From positions 1 through 38,987 of the forward strand of contig VHAX01000021.1 in assembly GCA_016872215.1 (NCBI GenBank): a DNA stretch of 38,987 nucleotides, in the 5' to 3' direction. Made by a program: the position numbers and the translations under genes. This stretch comes from Sphingomonadales bacterium. Its GTDB lineage: Bacteria > Bacteroidota > Bacteroidia > UBA7662. Each line of letters begins with the position of its first letter. Position 1 is the stretch's first letter. Shown here piece after piece: positions 6,016 through 31,024 of this stretch. Below the pieces are notes generated by a model. It had not been told where the DNA came from and made no database searches. It saw nothing but the letters and a program-made list of their open reading frames with translations.

Positions 6016-6909
6016 ATGAACAACCACAAAGCCGGATTCATCAGTCTGCTCGGCCTCCCCAACGCAGGTAAATCAACCCTAATGAACGCCCTGGTAGGGG
6101 AGAGGTTGTCGATCATCACCCCCAAGGCTCAAACCACCCGACACCGCATCATCGGAATCCTAAGCGGGGAAGGCTACCAACTCGTGTTTAGTGACACGCC
6201 CGGATACCTCGAAAGCGCCCACGGACTGCACCAGATGATGATGCGGTATGTCGATTCAGCCCTGCGTGATGCCGATATTGTACTGCTGATGGTCGACATA
6301 TCCCGACCCCCGGCAAAGGACGCCGACCCCTACCGAAAGCAGATCATCGACGCGGCAGAATCACTCATCGTGCTCTTCAACAAGACTGACCTGCTCAAGC
6401 CAGAAGAGCGCGAAGATCGACTGCTGGAATGGCGAGAACAGTTCCCCGATCAACAAATAATGGGACTCTCGGCCACAACCGGAGAAGGAAAAAATGAGCT
6501 GATGCAAGCCCTGCTCGACCGAATTCCCGAATGCCCAGCCTATTACGATCCTGACGCACTCACCGATAAAAGCGAGCGATTTATCGCAGCAGAGATCATC
6601 CGCGAGAAGATATTCTTGAACTACCGACAAGAAGTACCCTATTCCACCGAGGTCATGATTGAACACTTTAAGGACGATGACGGCCTTTTGCGCATAGAAG
6701 CAATTGTATATGTAGAGCGCGAATCGCAAAAGGGCATCATCATCGGTGCGGGCGGGTCGGGGCTCAAAGCCGTGGGGACTGAAGCGCGCAAGGATATGGA
6801 AGCCTTCTGGCAACAAAAAATATTTCTCACCATAAGGGTAAAAGTCCGTCCCAATTGGCGCAACGACCCGCGACAACTCCGTTATTTCGGGTACAGCGAC
6901 AAATCATGA
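6016..6909 (+). CDS. era: GTPase Era
   Basis: 297 residues, the usual Era length. Era is an essential GTPase that binds the 3' end of 16S rRNA and helps mature the small ribosomal subunit. G1 GLPNAGKST is at residues 13-21, the switch threonines near 40, G3 DTPG at 60-63 and G4 NKTD at 122-125. The C-terminal KH domain carries the RNA-binding loop GIIIGAGGSGLK near residues 239-250. The ATG at 6016 puts the first G motif at the standard place. The TGA stop overlaps the der start (ATGA, 6906-6909), so the two ribosome-assembly GTPases are translationally coupled, an order common in Bacteroidota. Confidence 0.97.
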   Translation: MNNHKAGFISLLGLPNAGKSTLMNALVGERLSIITPKAQTTRHRIIGILSGEGYQLVFSDTPGYLESAHGLHQMMMRYVDSALRDADIVLLMVDISRPPAKDADPYRKQIIDAAESLIVLFNKTDLLKPEEREDRLLEWREQFPDQQIMGLSATTGEGKNELMQALLDRIPECPAYYDPDALTDKSERFIAAEIIREKIFLNYRQEVPYSTEVMIEHFKDDDGLLRIEAIVYVERESQKGIIIGAGGSGLKAVGTEARKDMEAFWQQKIFLTIRVKVRPNWRNDPRQLRYFGYSDKS

Positions 6910-8207
6910 GCAGAATTGTAGCGATCGTAGGACGCCCCAACGTAGGCAAATCGACATTGTTCAATAGACTCATCGGTCGGCGCGAAGCCATCGTTGATGA
7001 CCTTTCGGGTGTGACCCGCGACCGTCACTACGGCACATCGGAGTGGTGTGACGAGGCATTCACCATCATCGACACCGGCGGATACGTCACCCAGTCGGAA
7101 GACCAGTTCGAAGCAGCCATACGCAAACAAGTGCACCTGGCCATCGAAGAAGCCGATATATTGTTGTTTGTGGTGGACGTGACCACCGGCATCACCGACC
7201 TCGACCAGTCACTCGCCAACATGCTCAGGCGCCATCCGAAACCTCTGTTGGTGGTGGCTAATAAAGTAGACCACGGCGAGCGTCTGCCCGCCAGCAGCGA
7301 ATTCTATGCCTTTGGGTTGGGGGAGGTCTACCCCATTTCCTCCCAGACCGGATCTGGAACAGGCGAATTACTCGATGAACTCATCAAGCATCTGCCACCC
7401 GCCACCGAGCCCGCACCGGAACTGCCCAAAATAGCCCTCGTGGGCCGTCCCAACGTTGGTAAATCCACCCTGCTCAACGCTTTGCTGGGTTATGAACGCA
7501 CCATCGTGACACCAATCGCCGGCACCACACGCGACGCTGTGCACACAGAATACAAAGGATTCGGCCACCATTTTGTGCTCACCGACACCGCCGGGCTGCG
7601 TAAAAAGGCCAAAGTACATGAGGATATAGAATTCTACTCGGTGTTGCGTACCCTTCGGGTGATCGAGGAGTCGGACGTGATTCTATTGCTCCTTGATGCC
7701 ATTCAAGGCATTGAATCGCAGGATCTGCAAATCTTTCACCTCGCCTCCAAACACCGACGGGGCGTCGTGATCCTGGTCAACAAATGGGATTTGGTCGAAA
7801 AAGACCATAAAACCATGAAGGAATACGAGAAAACAATCCGTGAACGCCTGGCACCCTTTCGCGATGTACCCATATTGTTCATTTCGGCGACCGACAAGCA
7901 GCGCATTTTCCAGGCAGTGGAAACGGCCATGAAGGTTCATCAGGCACGTCAGGCGCACATTCCAACCCGACAACTGAATGAAGTGATGGGTAAGGTAATC
8001 GAAGATTACCCCCCGCCATCCTGGAAGGGAAAGTACATTCGAATAAAATACATCACCCAGTTGCGACAAGTGCCACCAACATTTGTTTTCTTTTGCAATC
8101 TGCCTCAATACATCCGAGACCCCTACAAACGTTACTTAGAAAATAAGTTGAGGGATCACTACAATTTGTCGGGTGTGCCCGTCATACTATTGTTCCGGGA
8201 AAAATAG
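6906..8207 (+). CDS. der: Tandem-domain GTPase Der (EngA)
   Basis: 433 residues from the ATG at 6906. The open frame extends upstream to 6855, but that part lies inside era, and the protein's first G motif follows directly from this ATG. Two consecutive GTPase domains each have GRPNVGKST (near residues 8 and 181), DTGG or DTAG at G3, and NKVD and NKWD at G4, followed by the KH-like domain with the conserved run after VRKxxP-type residues (here SWKGKYIRIKYITQ). Der works in assembly of the 50S ribosomal subunit. Start and era stop overlap by four bases. No clear terminator follows; the next gene has its own promoter. Confidence 0.97.
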   Translation: MSRIVAIVGRPNVGKSTLFNRLIGRREAIVDDLSGVTRDRHYGTSEWCDEAFTIIDTGGYVTQSEDQFEAAIRKQVHLAIEEADILLFVVDVTTGITDLDQSLANMLRRHPKPLLVVANKVDHGERLPASSEFYAFGLGEVYPISSQTGSGTGELLDELIKHLPPATEPAPELPKIALVGRPNVGKSTLLNALLGYERTIVTPIAGTTRDAVHTEYKGFGHHFVLTDTAGLRKKAKVHEDIEFYSVLRTLRVIEESDVILLLLDAIQGIESQDLQIFHLASKHRRGVVILVNKWDLVEKDHKTMKEYEKTIRERLAPFRDVPILFISATDKQRIFQAVETAMKVHQARQAHIPTRQLNEVMGKVIEDYPPPSWKGKYIRIKYITQLRQVPPTFVFFCNLPQYIRDPYKRYLENKLRDHYNLSGVPVILLFREK

Positions 8208-8281: not shown

Positions 8282-8312
8282 GTTGCACACATTCTTTTAC
8301 TCATTACATTTG
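8282..8312 (+). promoter_or_regulatory. Promoter of the small lipoprotein gene
   Basis: GTTG (8282-8285), 19 bases, then a perfect TAnnTTTG element (TACATTTG, 8305-8312). The predicted start near 8318 leaves a leader of about 15 bases before the ATG at 8333, and rules out the in-frame upstream ATG at 8261. Confidence 0.7.
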
Positions 8313-8332: not shown

Positions 8333-8515
8333 ATGAAAAATGTATTCTCTGTGCTGATGGCTGGTGTTATGTTGTTCTCAGTTGCTTGTGGTGGTGGTGA
8401 AGAAGCTGCAGAAGAAACAGCTGTTACAGAAGAAGTAGCGGCTGAAGAGCCTGCTGCTGCTCCTGACTCAACTGCTGCTGCTCCTGACTCAACTGCTGCT
8501 GCTCCTGCTCAGTAA
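8333..8515 (+). CDS. Small acidic alanine-rich lipoprotein
   Basis: 60 residues. The N-terminus MKNVFSVLMAGVMLFSVAC ends in a lipobox (S-V-A-C, Cys19), followed by GGG and a run rich in Glu and Ala, then a seven-residue unit (AAAPDST) repeated twice and ending AAAPAQ. The mature chain is therefore a short, acidic, probably disordered tail anchored to a membrane by lipid. Such tiny lipoproteins are common in Bacteroidota and have no assigned role. The start at 8333 is chosen because the promoter element lies at 8305-8312 and the signal peptide begins exactly there. A strong own promoter and four following terminators suggest heavy transcription. No function can be given. Confidence 0.8.
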   Translation: MKNVFSVLMAGVMLFSVACGGGEEAAEETAVTEEVAAEEPAAAPDSTAAAPDSTAAAPAQ

Positions 8516-8765
8516 TCAGCAAGCCAATCAAAAGAGCCCACCCTACGGTGGGTTTTTTTTTGGAAATTCAGCAAGCCAATCAAAAGAGCCCACCCTACGG
8601 TGGGTTTTTTTTGGACATTCAGCAAGCCAATCAAAAGAGCCCACCCTACGGTGGGTTTTTTTTGGACATTCAGCAAGCCAATCAAAAGAGCCCACCCTAC
8701 GGTGGGTTTTTTTTGGACATTCAGCAAGCCAATTGAAAGAAGTCAATTTCCAAGTGGGCTTTTTA
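8516..8765. repeat. Tandem array of four intrinsic terminators, plus a degenerate fifth
   Basis: A 51-bp unit (first copy 52 bp) is repeated at 8516, 8568, 8619 and 8670. Each begins TCAGCAAGCCAATCAAAAG and contains the stem AGCCCACC / GGTGGGTT with loop CTAC followed by eight or nine T. Copies are nearly identical; the first ends GGAAAT where the others end GGACAT. From 8721 a fifth copy keeps TCAGCAAGCCAAT, then diverges into another hairpin ending GGGCTTTTT. On the minus strand the same stems are followed by CTCTTTT, so the array can also stop the convergent transporter transcript. Confidence 0.92.
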
Positions 8766-8818
8766 AGACACAGGTCATGCTCGATTGGTAATGTGCGAAA
8801 AATAGACTGGGTTTTTTC

Positions 8819-10402
8819 TCAACGCACATTCCCCATCAACTTGCGCATCATGGGCGATAGAAGCAAAAGGGCTACGCCAGCGATCACGGCATAACCACCG
8901 AAGAGCCTGTAGCCCTCGGTATAGGCATTCAATTTGTCGAGTGCCGTAGCGTTGGATTGTTCGGCCACTATGCTTGCGCCAAACAAGCCAGCCACATATT
9001 GTCCGTAGGCACTTGCCAGAAACCACATCCCCATCATCAGCCCTTGTAAGCGCGTTGGGGAGAGTTTTGTCATGATCGACAGGCCAATAGGCGACAAACA
9101 CAATTCACCGAGGGTCACCACGAAATAGGCTACAGTGAACACGTCGAGTGAGGCGATGCCCTCCGCCGTGGCAAAAAAACGAGTGGCATAAAAAGTATAG
9201 AAAGCCAGTCCAAGGAAAATGAAACCAAGTCCAAACTTGACCACCGTATTCGGTTCTAGTTTTTTGCGACTCATGGCTACCCAAAGCAAGCCCAACAATG
9301 GGGCAAAAAGAATAACGAACAGGGAGTTGGCTGCGTTGTTCACCCCATTGGGGTCGAGGATCACACTTCCCAGCAAACGATCGTTGAGGTTGTTGGCCGC
9401 AAACAGGCTCAAAGAGCCGCCCGCCTGTTCGAAAATGGCCCAGAAAATCACCGAAAACAAGATAAACATGAGTGCCGCCACCAGCTTCCGTACTTCCGCG
9501 GCGGAATGGCGCGACATCTCATATGCCAGATAGAGCAGGCTGAAGGGACCGATGGCATACATAAAATAATCGGTATAGACCGTGTTGGCCACCATTTTCA
9601 TGATTACTGGTACCGACAGGAGCGCTCCGGCAAAAACCGCCCATTCCTGCCAAAGAAATCCCGCCACACGTCGACCTGCGTCCTGTGAACCGGAAGAACT
9701 GTGACTGGATGAATCAGAAACGGAACCAGAAGCCGATGAGTCATAGTTTGCGGGTGTAAGTGGACTTGCCCCAATCGGGCCCATGCTGCGCCGGGTGAAC
9801 ACAAAAGTGAGCAGACTGATGCTCATCACCACCGCCACCAGTCCGAAAGCCACATTCCAACGCAGCACCTCAGGCACCCAGCTTGAAAACAGGCTCCCCT
9901 TACCAATCGCGATACAGGCATAGCCCCCAAAAAGTGCGCCCATATTGATGCCCGAATAAAAAAGCGAAAACCCCGCATCGCGGCGGGCATCGTCCTGCCG
10001 ATACAAAGCCCCAACCATGGTAGAGATATTCGGCTTAAAAAAGCCCGTGCCAATGACATTAAAAGAAATGCCCAGAAAGAAATACGACTTCGGATCGGCG
10101 GCCAGGATGAGACTGCCGCAAATCATAAGAAGTCCGCCCCAAAAAAGCGACTTCTGAAAGCCCAGAATGCGGTCGGCAAACAATCCCCCGATAAAAGTGA
10201 ACGCATACACAAAAGCCTGAGTGGCCCCATACTGCAGGTTTGCCGCCTTTTCATCCATAAACAATTGGTTTACCATGAAATAGGTGAGCATGCCCCGAAT
10301 GCCGTAGAAGCTAAAACGCTCCCACATCTCGGAGAAAAACAAGTACCACAATTGGCGGGGGTATTTCCCCTCAAAAGACTGAATGGAGGTTAGGCTCTGC
10401 AT
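8819..10402 (-). CDS. POT-family proton-coupled di/tripeptide transporter
   Basis: 527 residues with about 12-14 membrane segments. POT (PTR2) carriers import di- and tripeptides through the inner membrane with protons. The family signature in helix 1 is present (EMWERFSFYG, an ExxERFxYYG variant), as are GGLFADRILG after helix 2, the GTGFFKPNISTMVG motif, and FSLFYSGINMGA. A Ser-rich cytoplasmic loop (about 218-240) separates the two halves. Third in a row of three paralogues; the start lies 22 bases downstream of the previous transporter's stop, so the two are probably one operon. It ends facing the terminator array. Exact substrate range cannot be read. Confidence 0.9.
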   Translation of the reverse strand: MQSLTSIQSFEGKYPRQLWYLFFSEMWERFSFYGIRGMLTYFMVNQLFMDEKAANLQYGATQAFVYAFTFIGGLFADRILGFQKSLFWGGLLMICGSLILAADPKSYFFLGISFNVIGTGFFKPNISTMVGALYRQDDARRDAGFSLFYSGINMGALFGGYACIAIGKGSLFSSWVPEVLRWNVAFGLVAVVMSISLLTFVFTRRSMGPIGASPLTPANYDSSASGSVSDSSSHSSSGSQDAGRRVAGFLWQEWAVFAGALLSVPVIMKMVANTVYTDYFMYAIGPFSLLYLAYEMSRHSAAEVRKLVAALMFILFSVIFWAIFEQAGGSLSLFAANNLNDRLLGSVILDPNGVNNAANSLFVILFAPLLGLLWVAMSRKKLEPNTVVKFGLGFIFLGLAFYTFYATRFFATAEGIASLDVFTVAYFVVTLGELCLSPIGLSIMTKLSPTRLQGLMMGMWFLASAYGQYVAGLFGASIVAEQSNATALDKLNAYTEGYRLFGGYAVIAGVALLLLSPMMRKLMGNVR

Positions 10403-10424
10403 AGGTTGTTAACGGGATAGTGTG

Positions 10425-12074
10425 TTAAGATTCCTCACCCATGGAGCGGTTCAGCCAACGTAACATCAGGAACATACCCGCGGCGGCCACCCCCAAAAGG
10501 GTAAAATTTACAAGGAAGAAATCGCTCTTGTGGGCATAGCTATCCCACATGGTGGCCAAGATCCCACTCAGCTTGTTGCCAATGCTCGTGCTCAGAAACC
10601 AGCCCCCCATCATCAGAGCGGTGAGTCGGCGTGGACTCACCTTGCTCACCAGACTAAGGCCCATCGGACTCAAAAATAACTCCCCGATGGTTATCACCCC
10701 GTAGCAGACCACAAGCCACCAACCACTGGCTTTCATCTCGCCGTTTTTGCAGACATAAACAGCGGCCACCATCACCAGGGTACTGAGTGCGCTGATAAGG
10801 AGTCCCCATGCGATCTTGGTGGCCGTACGCGGTTCTTTTCCCCGCCTGCGCAAAAGAGCAAAGAAGCCCACCACCACTGGCGTCAGCAGGATCACCCAAA
10901 GCGGGTTGATGCTTTGAAATAACTCTGTATTGAACAGATGGAGCGACTTGCCTTCGGCCGGCATACGCTCCGCCTGTAGATTCTTGAAATACACCAGTTT
11001 GCCCCATTCCTTCACTTCCTTACCGTCGACCTTCACCACCTTAAAATTCGCGTCGTAGGCGGTCACCGAATCAACTTGGTTGGGGGCCGACTCGGCCAGG
11101 TAGAGGGCTTCAGCGGCAGGACGCACCAGTTCGGGTACCTCCCTGTCGGTATAGAACTGTGCCCAGGTGGTGAGGGCGGTGCCATTCTGCTTAAAAACGG
11201 CCCAAAACATAATGCTCACAGCGAAAATACTGAGCAGAGCTGCCAGTTGACGCTTATCGTCGACCGCCGCCCGAATCCACAGACCCACGTAAAACACCAC
11301 CACAGGAATGGTCGCGAAAATAAAGGCATCCGTACTGTCGCTGCCCAGCAGGTTACCCGGAATCATCCAGGCGGCAATGCCTACCACTACGGCCGGCAGG
11401 AAAACGGTGCCAAATACTCTGGCGAGCGACATATCCTCCTTTTGGGCAGGTTTACGCACATCGGCGTGCCGATAGTGGCGCAGACCCATAGCAAAAACAA
11501 CAAGGCCGATGAACATCCCCACGCCGGCGGTCATAAAGGCCTCACCCCAGCCATATTTGTTGCGCATGAAGGCAGCAAAAAGGTTGCATATACCCGCCCC
11601 AAGGTTAATCCCCATGTAAAAGATGTTGTAGCCGCTGTCCTTTTGCGTATTGTAGCGCTCATCGTTATACAAATTGCCCAGCAGCGTGCTGATGTTGGGT
11701 TTGAAAAAACCATTGCCCAAAATGATCAGCAGGAGAGAGATGTAAAATGTTGTCATGCCCGGCAGGGCGAGTCCCATATACCCCAGACCCATTAAAGCCC
11801 CACCAATGAAGATACTCTTGGTATAGCCCAAGATACGATCTGCTAATAGTCCACCCAGAAAGGGGGTCAAGAAAACAAATGCGATGAACGTACCGTAGAT
11901 ATCGGCTGCCTCCTTGCGATCCATAGCCATTCCCCCGGTGGCGATCGGATCGGTCAGATAGAGTTGAAAAATTCCAATCATCAGATAATACCCGAAGCGC
12001 TCCCACATCTCGGTGAGAAACAGGAAGGGGAGTCCTGAAGGGTGTTTGCCGTTACCGGAGGGTACTGTTGACAT
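10425..12074 (-). CDS. POT-family peptide transporter with extra periplasmic-type loop
   Basis: 549 residues. Family motifs: helix 1 EMWERFGYYLMIGIF, GGLLADRILGYTKS, GNGFFKPNISTLLG, YNIFYMGINLGA and the C-terminal LSPMGLSLVSKVSP. In helix 1 the usual ExxERFxYYG ends in Leu instead of Gly, unlike the two neighbours. After about residue 300 there is an extra soluble stretch of about 75 residues (around VRPAAEALYLAES to LHLFNTELFQ) that the other two lack; similar inserts occur in one branch of bacterial POT proteins. The stop is 22 bases before the next transporter's start. The 249-base gap upstream to the third paralogue may hold its own promoter. Confidence 0.9.
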   Translation of the reverse strand: MSTVPSGNGKHPSGLPFLFLTEMWERFGYYLMIGIFQLYLTDPIATGGMAMDRKEAADIYGTFIAFVFLTPFLGGLLADRILGYTKSIFIGGALMGLGYMGLALPGMTTFYISLLLIILGNGFFKPNISTLLGNLYNDERYNTQKDSGYNIFYMGINLGAGICNLFAAFMRNKYGWGEAFMTAGVGMFIGLVVFAMGLRHYRHADVRKPAQKEDMSLARVFGTVFLPAVVVGIAAWMIPGNLLGSDSTDAFIFATIPVVVFYVGLWIRAAVDDKRQLAALLSIFAVSIMFWAVFKQNGTALTTWAQFYTDREVPELVRPAAEALYLAESAPNQVDSVTAYDANFKVVKVDGKEVKEWGKLVYFKNLQAERMPAEGKSLHLFNTELFQSINPLWVILLTPVVVGFFALLRRRGKEPRTATKIAWGLLISALSTLVMVAAVYVCKNGEMKASGWWLVVCYGVITIGELFLSPMGLSLVSKVSPRRLTALMMGGWFLSTSIGNKLSGILATMWDSYAHKSDFFLVNFTLLGVAAAGMFLMLRWLNRSMGEES

Positions 12075-12323
12075 AAATCAGAATGTGTATTAAATTGATA
12101 AAACTACAAATTGATTGGTTTTTCGATGCTACAAGTGTGTCCGAAGAGGGTGAAGGGGTGAAAGGACGTTCAAACGATAGGAAGATCAGGAAGGTTGCTT
12201 TATGTATGTGGTGATGTTGATCATCGGTCGACCGGTTGTTCATTATGAACGATTGAATGGGTGATTAGGATCATCGGTTGATGATAGAGTTGGGGGTGAC
12301 AGTGTCGTCAGGAAAATTACAGG

Positions 12324-13802
12324 TCAACGAATACCGTGGAAGAGTTTGTTGACGAGTGGACTCACCACAACGAGGAAGAGGCCGATGCCTACGGTAACCA
12401 ACCCCATAGTGCTGTAGACATCCACATAGGTGGCCAGACTCGTGGATGCATCTATTGATGAGGCACCTTCACCCCCTCCATGCTCGGCACCGGTGAATTT
12501 GGCGAGCATACCCGCAGCATAATTGGCTCCGGCAATACTCAGGAACCAAGCACCCATGGCCGTAGCAGTCATATCCTTCGGAACGAGTTTAGTCACCATA
12601 CTCAGGCCGATTGGGCTCAAAAACAGTTCACCCGTGGTATGCAGCATATACAACAATGCCAACGTCCACAGTGGAACCTGATACTCCACAGCGAGTGGTG
12701 CTGCGAGGAGAATCACCAAATAGCCTAGACCCAGCTGCAAAATGCCAAGTCCGAATTTCATCGGTATGGAAAAGTCACGTCCAGTCTGCTGCAAGCGCAC
12801 CCACATGATGCTGAACAACGATCCAAACAGAAGAATATAGGCCGGGTTAAAAAACTGAGTGGTGGCGGCACCCATTTCCCAACCCCCAATCATGCGGTTC
12901 ACATTTCGGTCGGCAAACAGAGTGAGGCTGCTACCGGCCTGTTCGAAGCAGGCCCAAAATACCACATTAAAAAGCATCAGGATGATAAAACCAATCATTT
13001 TGTCGAGCTGTACACGACCATCCTTTACGCCGCGGGCAATTAGTGAGCCCAGCACATACACGGCCACGGCGAGCAGCACATAACCTGCAATATTGGTGTT
13101 GCGCAAGAGGAAGTAGAGCACCGGAACAAGAGCCAGACAGCCCAAAACAACGAGACTAAATGGACTCAAAGGCCCCCATTTCGGGGTGTGGAGCGTTTCG
13201 GGAGAAGGCGGCGCACTCACATGGCTGTAGTGACGGCCACCTAATTGAAATATGAGCACCCCCAACAACATCCCCACACCGGCGAGGGCAAAACCGGCAC
13301 GAGCTCCATACATGTGGCCCACCTCGGCGCAAACAGTGGTGGCGAGCAATGCACCCAGGTTAATGCCAATGTAGAAGATGGTGAAACCCGAGTCGCGGCG
13401 CACATCACCATCGGCATACAACTTGCCCACCATGGTGCTGATGTTTGGCTTGAACAGACCGTTGCCAACAATGATGATGGCCATACCCCAAAACAGCAGC
13501 ATTTCGGAGCCCTCAACGATTACAAATTCACCGATGGCCATAAGAATACCGCCGAGCAGCACGGCTAATCGCGAGCCAAGAATTTGGTCAGCAATGCGCC
13601 CGCCCAAAACGGGCATCACATACACCAACGCGGTGTAGGCACCGTACACGGCGAAGCCCTTTTCGTCGCCCATTTTCAGCGACTTCACAAGATAGAGCAG
13701 GAGCAAGGCGCGCATACCATAATAGCAAAAGCGTTCCCACATTTCGCTGGCGAAGAGAATCCAGAGGCCCCGGGGATGGGTGAGTTCGGCGTTGGCGTTC
13801 AT
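12324..13802 (-). CDS. POT-family peptide transporter
   Basis: 492 residues. Signature in helix 1 is EMWERFCYYGMRALL, a full ExxERFxYYG motif. Other family motifs: GGRIADQILGSR, GNGLFKPNISTMVGKLY, FTIFYIGINLGALL and LSPIGLSMVTKLVP. Imports di- or tripeptides with protons across the inner membrane. It is transcribed in the same direction as, and lies 139 bases downstream of, the dipeptidyl peptidase gene, so peptide release and uptake are encoded side by side. It differs enough from the two downstream copies that the three are not a recent duplication. Confidence 0.9.
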   Translation of the reverse strand: MNANAELTHPRGLWILFASEMWERFCYYGMRALLLLYLVKSLKMGDEKGFAVYGAYTALVYVMPVLGGRIADQILGSRLAVLLGGILMAIGEFVIVEGSEMLLFWGMAIIIVGNGLFKPNISTMVGKLYADGDVRRDSGFTIFYIGINLGALLATTVCAEVGHMYGARAGFALAGVGMLLGVLIFQLGGRHYSHVSAPPSPETLHTPKWGPLSPFSLVVLGCLALVPVLYFLLRNTNIAGYVLLAVAVYVLGSLIARGVKDGRVQLDKMIGFIILMLFNVVFWACFEQAGSSLTLFADRNVNRMIGGWEMGAATTQFFNPAYILLFGSLFSIMWVRLQQTGRDFSIPMKFGLGILQLGLGYLVILLAAPLAVEYQVPLWTLALLYMLHTTGELFLSPIGLSMVTKLVPKDMTATAMGAWFLSIAGANYAAGMLAKFTGAEHGGGEGASSIDASTSLATYVDVYSTMGLVTVGIGLFLVVVSPLVNKLFHGIR

Positions 13803-29128: not shown

Positions 29129-31024
29129 GTGTCACGACCGCAATTCAACAGCAACCAAAGTGTAGGCACCGACGATGCTCCCAAGGTGCGTCTCAGCGGA
29201 GCCGCCCTGAGCCGATTCCTGCAACTCCTTAGATACATGCGGCCCTACCGCAGCGCGTACTTCCTCGGACTTCTTATGCTGGTGCTCTCGAGCCTTTCGT
29301 CGCTCTCCTTTCCATGGCTCATGGGGCAGCTTATCGATACCTCCCTCGGACAACTGCCATCGAACCGCGAAGGCCTGCCGGGGGTAGGAGGGGGCCCATC
29401 GGTGTCGTGGGACCTCAACGGGCTCGCCTGGGTACTAGTGGGTGTACTCGTCCTGCAGTCTATCTTCTCCTTCGCGCGGGTTTACCTCTTCGTGCGTGTG
29501 GGCGAGTCTACCCTGGCCGACCTCAGACGCGATACCTATGAACATCTGCTGCGCTTGCCCATGGAATTCTTCGGGTCGAGGCGGGTAGGTGAACTTAACT
29601 CACGGCTATCGGCCGATTTATCGCTCATTCAGGACACGCTAAGCACCACCCTTGCCGAATTGCTGCGCCAGACCGTGGTGCTGGTGGGTGGACTAGCATT
29701 ATTGGCGTCGACCAGTGTTCGGCTGATGGGGTTCATGCTCGCCATACTCCCCATTTTGGTGCTTTTGGCCGTGGTTTTTGGTCGCTGGATCCGCAAGGTG
29801 GCCCGCGCAGCGCAAGACGAATTGGCCGATGCCCAAACCATCGTGGAGGAAACCCTGCAGGCTATTGGCAGCGTGAAAGCCTACGCCAATGAGGATTACG
29901 AAACCCAGCGATTTAAGGGCAAGATGAGGTCGGTTGTGAAGTTGGCCCTCCGGGGTGCCCTGTTCCGGGCTGCGTTCACAAGCTTTGTGATCCTCGGGCT
30001 GTTCGGGAGTATAGTAGCGGTCATCTGGTTTGGTGCGCTTATGGTGCGCGACGGCAGCCTCAGCATTGGTAGCCTCACCAGTTTCGTTTTGTACAGCACC
30101 TTCGTAGGTGCCGCCCTGGGAGGCTTCGCCGAGTTGTTTGCCCAGCTTCAACGTACGCTCGGGGCCACCGAACGCGTGCTCGATCTCTTTTCCGAACCCG
30201 CCGAGCCCTGGACCGGAGGAACGGCCGATGCATCGAAAATCAAGGGCCACATCGAATTTCAGTCGGTCGACTTCCACTACGCATCGCGGGCCGACGTGCC
30301 TGTGCTCAGGCAGGTGAACCTTTCGGTCGCCCCGGGCGAAACCCTGGCCCTGGTGGGAGCAAGTGGCGCGGGAAAATCGACCATCGTTCAGTTGCTGCTC
30401 GGATTCTATGCACCCGTGGGCGGCACCGTGCAGGTCGATGGGGTAGAGCCCAGCCATTATGGCTGGTCGACCTACCGACGCAAGCTGGCGGTGGTGCCCC
30501 AGGACATCGTTTTGTTTGGCGGAACCATCCGCGAGAACATCGCTTATGGCCGACCCGGTGCTGGCGACGATGAGATTCGCGACGTGGCAGTACGGGCGCA
30601 CGCCTGGGAGTTTATCGCACAGTTTCCTCAGCAGCTCGATACTGTGGTAGGGGAGCGCGGGGTGCGGTTGAGTGGTGGACAAAGACAACGTATTGCGATA
30701 GCCCGTGCCATTCTGCGCGATCCGGTGATTCTAATCCTCGATGAGGCCACGAGTTCGCTCGACAGTGCGTCTGAACGGCTTGTGCAGGCCGGTTTGGAGG
30801 AGTTGATGCGCGGGCGAACTTCGGTGGTGGTGGCGCACCGACTTAGTACGATCCGCGGTGCTCACCGGATCGCAGTGCTGCAACAGGGAACGGTGGCGGA
30901 ATATGGCACCCACGAAGATCTGATGGAGGCCGATGGTCTGTATGCGGGCATGTATCGGCTGCAGATGAGCGGTCGCATTCTGGAGTCGGGGTTGACATCC
31001 GATCCGTTGGACCTGCGAGGGTAG
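29129..31024 (+). CDS. MsbA-like ABC exporter (fused membrane and ATPase half-transporter)
   Basis: 631 residues from a GTG. The membrane domain covers about residues 30-330 with six helices and the coupling helix EFFGSRRVGELNSRLSAD. The ATPase domain has Walker A GASGAGKST (410-418), Q-loop Gln458 (VPQD), signature LSGGQ (514-518), Walker B VILILDEATSSLD (533-545) and the switch His in VVVAHRLST. It works as a homodimer or heterodimer exporting lipid, peptide or drug; the substrate cannot be told. No partner half-transporter is adjacent, so a homodimer is likely. Only GTG fits near the homology start; the first ATG comes after helix 1 begins. Confidence 0.93.
   Translation: MSRPQFNSNQSVGTDDAPKVRLSGAALSRFLQLLRYMRPYRSAYFLGLLMLVLSSLSSLSFPWLMGQLIDTSLGQLPSNREGLPGVGGGPSVSWDLNGLAWVLVGVLVLQSIFSFARVYLFVRVGESTLADLRRDTYEHLLRLPMEFFGSRRVGELNSRLSADLSLIQDTLSTTLAELLRQTVVLVGGLALLASTSVRLMGFMLAILPILVLLAVVFGRWIRKVARAAQDELADAQTIVEETLQAIGSVKAYANEDYETQRFKGKMRSVVKLALRGALFRAAFTSFVILGLFGSIVAVIWFGALMVRDGSLSIGSLTSFVLYSTFVGAALGGFAELFAQLQRTLGATERVLDLFSEPAEPWTGGTADASKIKGHIEFQSVDFHYASRADVPVLRQVNLSVAPGETLALVGASGAGKSTIVQLLLGFYAPVGGTVQVDGVEPSHYGWSTYRRKLAVVPQDIVLFGGTIRENIAYGRPGAGDDEIRDVAVRAHAWEFIAQFPQQLDTVVGERGVRLSGGQRQRIAIARAILRDPVILILDEATSSLDSASERLVQAGLEELMRGRTSVVVAHRLSTIRGAHRIAVLQQGTVAEYGTHEDLMEADGLYAGMYRLQMSGRILESGLTSDPLDLRG

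What the first reader, a model, noticed from the sequence alone, without database searches (positions are those of the whole stretch)
8516..8765. Four near-identical terminators in tandem after a 60-residue lipoprotein
A 51-bp unit holding a whole intrinsic terminator is repeated four times with almost no divergence, with a decayed fifth. The near-identity means recent amplification or active homogenising. The stems also work on the other strand, so the array isolates convergent genes. It may give the small lipoprotein mRNA several stable 3' ends or act as an absorber of some RNA-binding factor.
Basis: seen in the sequence. Interest (0 to 1): 0.6.

Follow-up and report, generated by a model that had tools for sequence, protein, structure and literature searches.

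The report
Stop signal copied four times
In one uncultured Bacteroidota bacterium, the ordinary transcription stop signal behind a small, probably abundant lipoprotein gene has been copied four times in a row by local DNA duplication, giving spare stop signals where its relatives have one; it is real, but mostly an ordinary process with a tidy result.

Summary
Four head-to-tail units of 52, 51, 51 and 51 bp (8516-8720) each hold a complete intrinsic terminator and follow directly on the stop codon of a 60-residue lipoprotein gene. Units 2-4 are identical; unit 1 differs by one T and one substitution; a degenerate fifth unit follows. The array is unique in its 2.09 Mb genome and is the only same-strand cluster of strict terminators there. 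In 15 relatives of the same family the locus der - lipoprotein - terminator is conserved with exactly one terminator, 17-24 nt after the stop, with stem sequences that change but always pair. So an ancestral single terminator was amplified in this lineage. The fifth unit resembles a sister species' single terminator better than units 1-4, so it is an older, decayed copy. Tandem arrays are common in this genome (141), so slippage explains the amplification without a special function. Most likely effect: unit 1 terminates most transcripts; units 2-4, 71-173 nt from the stop and outside the reach of a trailing ribosome, catch read-through before the convergent POT transporter gene. Whether four copies are selected is unknown. 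Copy number is from one draft assembly and unverified. The 'absorber' idea has no support.

The parts
8283..8312 (+). Bacteroidota-type promoter: TTG (8283-8285), 19-nt spacer, TACATTTG (8305-8312), 28 nt before the start codon
   Evidence: TTG-N19..21-TANNTTTG found at -28 to -32 in all 16 family genomes; consensus TTTG/TANNTTTG from PMC6847099
8333..8515 (+). small lipoprotein gene, 60 aa, lipobox FSVAC, Ala/Glu/Pro-rich tail
   Evidence: ORF; orthologues after der in 15 relatives; GCT for 15 of 17 Ala codons
8516..8567 (+). terminator unit 1 (52 bp), hairpin 8535-8554, 19 nt after the stop codon
8568..8618 (+). terminator unit 2 (51 bp), hairpin 8587-8606
8619..8669 (+). terminator unit 3 (51 bp), hairpin 8638-8657
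8670..8720 (+). terminator unit 4 (51 bp), hairpin 8689-8708
8721..8771 (+). degenerate fifth unit; first 13 bases identical to the units, then a decayed terminator closer to the sister species' single terminator
   Evidence: no stable hairpin
8819..10402 (-). convergent POT-family (PTR2) peptide transporter gene, whose 3' end faces the array
   Evidence: Pfam PF00854, E 6e-47
6906..8207 (+). der (EngA GTPase) gene upstream, used as anchor for the orthologous locus
   Evidence: Pfam MMR_HSR1 twice plus KH_dom-like

Best explanation
The array is the lipoprotein gene's own intrinsic terminator, multiplied in place. Shown: the terminator is ancestral and single in the family, and four near-identical copies plus one decayed copy stand here. 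Inferred history: an early duplication left two copies; the distal one decayed; the proximal one was later expanded to four by replication slippage or unequal exchange, which short direct repeats and hairpins favour and which is common in this genome. Inferred action: RNA polymerase leaving the strongly expressed lipoprotein gene meets unit 1, 19 nt after the stop codon, where most transcripts end. Polymerases that pass it, for example because a ribosome at the stop codon hinders the hairpin, meet units 2-4 at 71, 122 and 173 nt, beyond ribosome reach, so little transcription enters the convergent POT gene. The spare copies need no further function and may be selectively near-neutral.
For: One terminator at the orthologous place in all 15 relatives, 17-24 nt after the stop, with perfectly paired stems whose sequences differ (aagcctgtc/gacaggctt, aagcccatc/gatgggctt, aatcccggcc/ggtcgggatt and others), which shows conserved terminator structure. 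Units 2-4 identical. The genome holds 141 non-redundant tandem arrays, 75 outside genes of at least 100 codons. The G003 relative has an unrelated 15-bp x4 array just after its single terminator, and the lipoprotein gene itself has a 21-bp x3 array. The fifth unit aligns better to G003's single terminator (29; 3 of 2000 shuffles) than to units 1-4 (24; 32 of 2000). A conserved own promoter and the highest GCT share for Ala (0.88) against 1469 genes, a codon also enriched in ribosomal protein genes, suggest high expression. In E. coli a terminator 17-18 nt from a stop gave efficiency 0.12 or 0.8 by context and about 0.9 beyond 30 nt (PMC4824070). Homologous repeated terminators recombine readily by slippage in E. 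coli (PMC2991278).
Against: No transcription data, so termination, expression level and coupling are inferred. Transcription-translation coupling is not established for this phylum here. By random placement only about 0.2 terminator-holding arrays would be expected among the 27 intergenic arrays with period of at least 30, so pure chance is a little strained though not excluded, and that leaves room for selection. The crude gene calls and terminator scan are noisy (60 of 195 sites near a same-strand gene end against 42 in the opposite-strand control).
Confidence: 0.62

Rival explanations
1. A selected super-terminator: four copies are kept because the gene is very strongly transcribed and each terminator has become weaker, so several in series are needed.
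For: The core hairpin here is the weakest of the 16 family members (-12.4 kcal/mol against -13.5 to -21.0; one G.U pair, one pair shorter than the sister species). The gene looks highly expressed. Chance expectation of such an array is about 0.2.
Against: The energy difference to the next weakest is about 1 kcal/mol and disappears when A/U pairs are counted. Intact repeats may only mean recent copying. Relatives with the same gene manage with one terminator.
Confidence: 0.2
2. The copy number is an assembly product: the true locus has fewer or more than four units.
For: Units 2-4 are identical and the source is a 53-contig draft, so reads shorter than about 200 bases could not count them.
Against: Graph assemblers usually collapse rather than add repeats (general knowledge); unit 1, the unit junctions and the fifth unit are distinct, so at least two units are required by sequence.
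Confidence: 0.1
3. The array makes several stable 3' ends or a structured RNA that titrates an RNA-binding factor.
For: Identical hairpins in series could in principle bind the same factor.
Against: Not dispersed or conserved in copy number; Rfam matches all below threshold; distal units transcribed only on read-through.
Confidence: 0.05
4. The 51-bp repeat (17 codons) encodes a repeat peptide.
For: Open frames cross the array on both strands.
Against: 51 is a multiple of 3 one time in three by chance; unit 1 is 52 bp and breaks frame; relatives have one non-coding terminator with compensatory stem changes.
Confidence: 0.01

Closest known systems
Tandem or double intrinsic terminators and hairpin clusters (e.g. 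as surveyed in PMC8355165; engineered double terminators)
   Same: More than one intrinsic terminator in series after one gene, giving spare termination capacity
   Different: [quoted passage not shown] here one unit with its spacer is copied four times almost without change, hairpins about 31 bases apart
Intergenic minisatellite / VNTR arrays
   Same: 51-bp head-to-tail near-identical units, single locus, degenerate terminal unit, absent in relatives
   Different: The unit happens to be a complete, ancestral terminator; length variation between strains not tested
Bidirectional terminators between convergent genes (PMC5381666)
   Same: Lies between convergent genes; hairpin also forms on the other strand
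   Different: Reverse U-tract is weak (CUCUUUUGAUU)

Membership tests
Rho-independent (intrinsic) terminator | GC-rich hairpin followed by U-tract, after a gene, on the coding strand | tested here: met
   8-bp core stem, loop CTAC, T8-T9, in units 1-4
Rho-independent (intrinsic) terminator | Structure conserved while sequence changes in orthologues | tested here: met
   16 of 16 genomes, stems differ but pair fully
Rho-independent (intrinsic) terminator | Transcripts end there | not testable with these tools
   needs Term-seq or a reporter
Tandem repeat locus (minisatellite/VNTR) | Head-to-tail near-identical units at one locus | tested here: met
Tandem repeat locus (minisatellite/VNTR) | Copy number varies between strains | not testable with these tools
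   one genome per species held; other species have one copy
Dispersed intergenic repeat (REP/BIME/MIRU-like) | Unit present at many loci in the genome | tested here: not met
   only this locus
CRISPR array | Identical repeats separated by unique spacers | tested here: not met
   units abut; nothing unique between them
PG1828 family lipoprotein (NF050142) | Score above curated cut-off | tested here: not met
   22.9 bits (window) and 32.3 bits (relative) against cut-off 50

The most novel reading that the evidence does not exclude
A length-variable terminator array: slippage changes the number of terminators behind a very highly expressed lipoprotein gene, and so tunes read-through and antisense transcription into the convergent POT transporter as a rheostat that can vary between cells of a population.
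Probability: 0.06. Interest if true: 0.55.

Novelty: new variant of a known kind. Interest (0 to 1): 0.3.

Why it matters
It is a clear natural case of a whole terminator being multiplied in place, with sister species showing the single-copy ancestor and a relic of an earlier copy. It would let one measure how many identical terminators in series a cell tolerates or benefits from, a question known mainly from engineered constructs, where such repeats are quickly deleted. The conserved 17-24 nt stop-to-hairpin distance in the family is also a handle on whether translation affects termination in Bacteroidota.

Tried and rejected
Dispersed repeat family: rejected, single locus. A second array found by a 3-mismatch pattern search (G000 contig C12, about 29620-29829, period 47) looked like a sibling but is not a terminator: no T-tract, and it lies beyond the 3' end of a DNA polymerase beta-subunit-like gene (named by eye, not by a family search). 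Plasmid, phage and viral-contig origin: no match. Rfam: only sub-threshold matches. Repeat peptide: rejected (see rivals). CRISPR: no spacers. CAI against a small reference set was uninformative for the lipoprotein (0.66, below median); only the GCT share is striking and the tandem repeat contributes to it. Literature: no hit for 'tandem intrinsic terminators', and none of the titles and abstracts listed describes a natural array of identical terminators; the library is open-access only, so this is weak evidence of absence.

Full report
Observation. Between a 60-residue lipoprotein gene (8333-8515, +) and a convergent POT transporter gene (8819-10402, -) stand four head-to-tail units of 52, 51, 51 and 51 bp, 8516-8720, followed by a degenerate fifth. 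Units 2-4 are identical; unit 1 has one extra T and one substitution. Each unit folds as a terminator hairpin with a run of T (unit 1 -21.2, unit 2 -19.9 kcal/mol; no shuffle as good); the fifth does not. The array begins at the first base after the stop codon. On the other strand the hairpin also forms but the tail is weak, so 'bidirectional' is only a possibility.

Genome context. The window lies in a 2.09 Mb, 53-contig draft genome, which I took in stretches and scanned whole. The unit occurs nowhere else. A strict scan finds 195 terminator-like sites, and the only same-strand neighbours within 120 bp are the three pairs in this array. In 484 kb of other Bacteroidota DNA there is one neighbour pair, not identical. 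Tandem arrays as such are common here: 141 non-redundant, 75 of them outside genes of at least 100 codons. Placing 51-bp duplications at random in intergenic DNA captures a whole strict terminator 0.6% of the time; with 27 intergenic arrays of period 30 or more about 0.2 such arrays are expected. That is compatible with chance but leaves room for selection.

Relatives. Anchoring on Der, 15 other genomes of the family carry der, then a 57-66 residue lipoprotein, then exactly one terminator whose hairpin starts 17-24 nt after the stop codon. The stems differ in sequence but pair without mismatch in all 16 genomes, so the terminator appears to be under selection as a structure. A Bacteroidota promoter (TTG, 19-21 nt, TANNTTTG; consensus in PMC6847099) stands 28-32 nt before the start codon in all 16, so the gene is very probably its own transcription unit. 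GCT makes up 15 of 17 Ala codons, a larger share than in any of 1469 genes tested; ribosomal protein genes are also high. I infer strong expression; the repeat-rich tail is a caveat, though relatives with other tails are GCT-rich too.

History. The two same-genus relatives with the locus have one copy. The fifth unit keeps AGAAG and GGGCTTTTT, as in those sisters, where units 1-4 have AGAG and GGGTTTT, and aligns better with the G003 terminator (score 29; 3 of 2000 shuffles as good) than with units 1-4 (24; 32 of 2000). So an older duplication probably left a distal copy that decayed, and the proximal copy was recently expanded. G003 has its own, unrelated 15-bp x4 array after its single terminator, and the lipoprotein gene here has a 21-bp x3 array; this neighbourhood seems prone to slippage. 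In E. coli circuits homologous terminators are deleted by slippage within tens of generations (PMC2991278), which suits a recent, labile array.

Mechanism. Unit 1 starts its hairpin 19 nt after the stop. In E. coli a terminator that close to a stop can be partly suppressed by the ribosome (efficiency 0.12 or 0.8 at 17-18 nt, about 0.9 beyond 30 nt; PMC4824070). Units 2-4, at 71, 122 and 173 nt, would be free of this. The simplest working model is therefore a main terminator with spare copies that stop read-through into the convergent POT gene. The steps from sequence to termination are inferred, not shown. Whether the extra copies give any advantage is open: the core hairpin is the weakest in the family (-12.4 kcal/mol), but by little.

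Verdict. It is a neat natural variant of tandem terminators, produced by an ordinary duplication process. The copy number rests on one draft assembly.

Noticed in passing
G000 contig C12, about 29620-29829 (L027 1422-1631): A 47-bp x4.4 tandem array beyond the 3' end of a DNA polymerase beta-subunit-like gene, not a terminator.
   Followed up: partly
window 8451-8511: 21-bp x3 tandem repeat inside the lipoprotein gene (Asp-Ser-Thr-Ala-Ala-Ala-Pro type), absent in this form from the sister species.
   Followed up: partly
L003 about 1737-1796: A different 15-bp x4 tandem array directly after the single terminator in a same-genus relative.
   Followed up: partly
L110-L125 (family survey): Stop-to-terminator distance of the lipoprotein gene is held at 17-24 nt in 16 genomes although sequence changes; possibly a coupling of translation and termination.
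   Followed up: partly
window 8333-8515: Ala codons of the lipoprotein gene are GCT in 15 of 17, the highest share among 1469 genes; resembles PG1828-family lipoproteins but scores below the cut-off.
   Followed up: partly
window 8819-13802: Three POT-family (PTR2) transporter genes in a row on the - strand.
   Followed up: no
window 8791-8828: An inverted repeat (TGTGCG...CGCACA) overlaps the stop codon of the POT gene; not a terminator by its tail.
   Followed up: no
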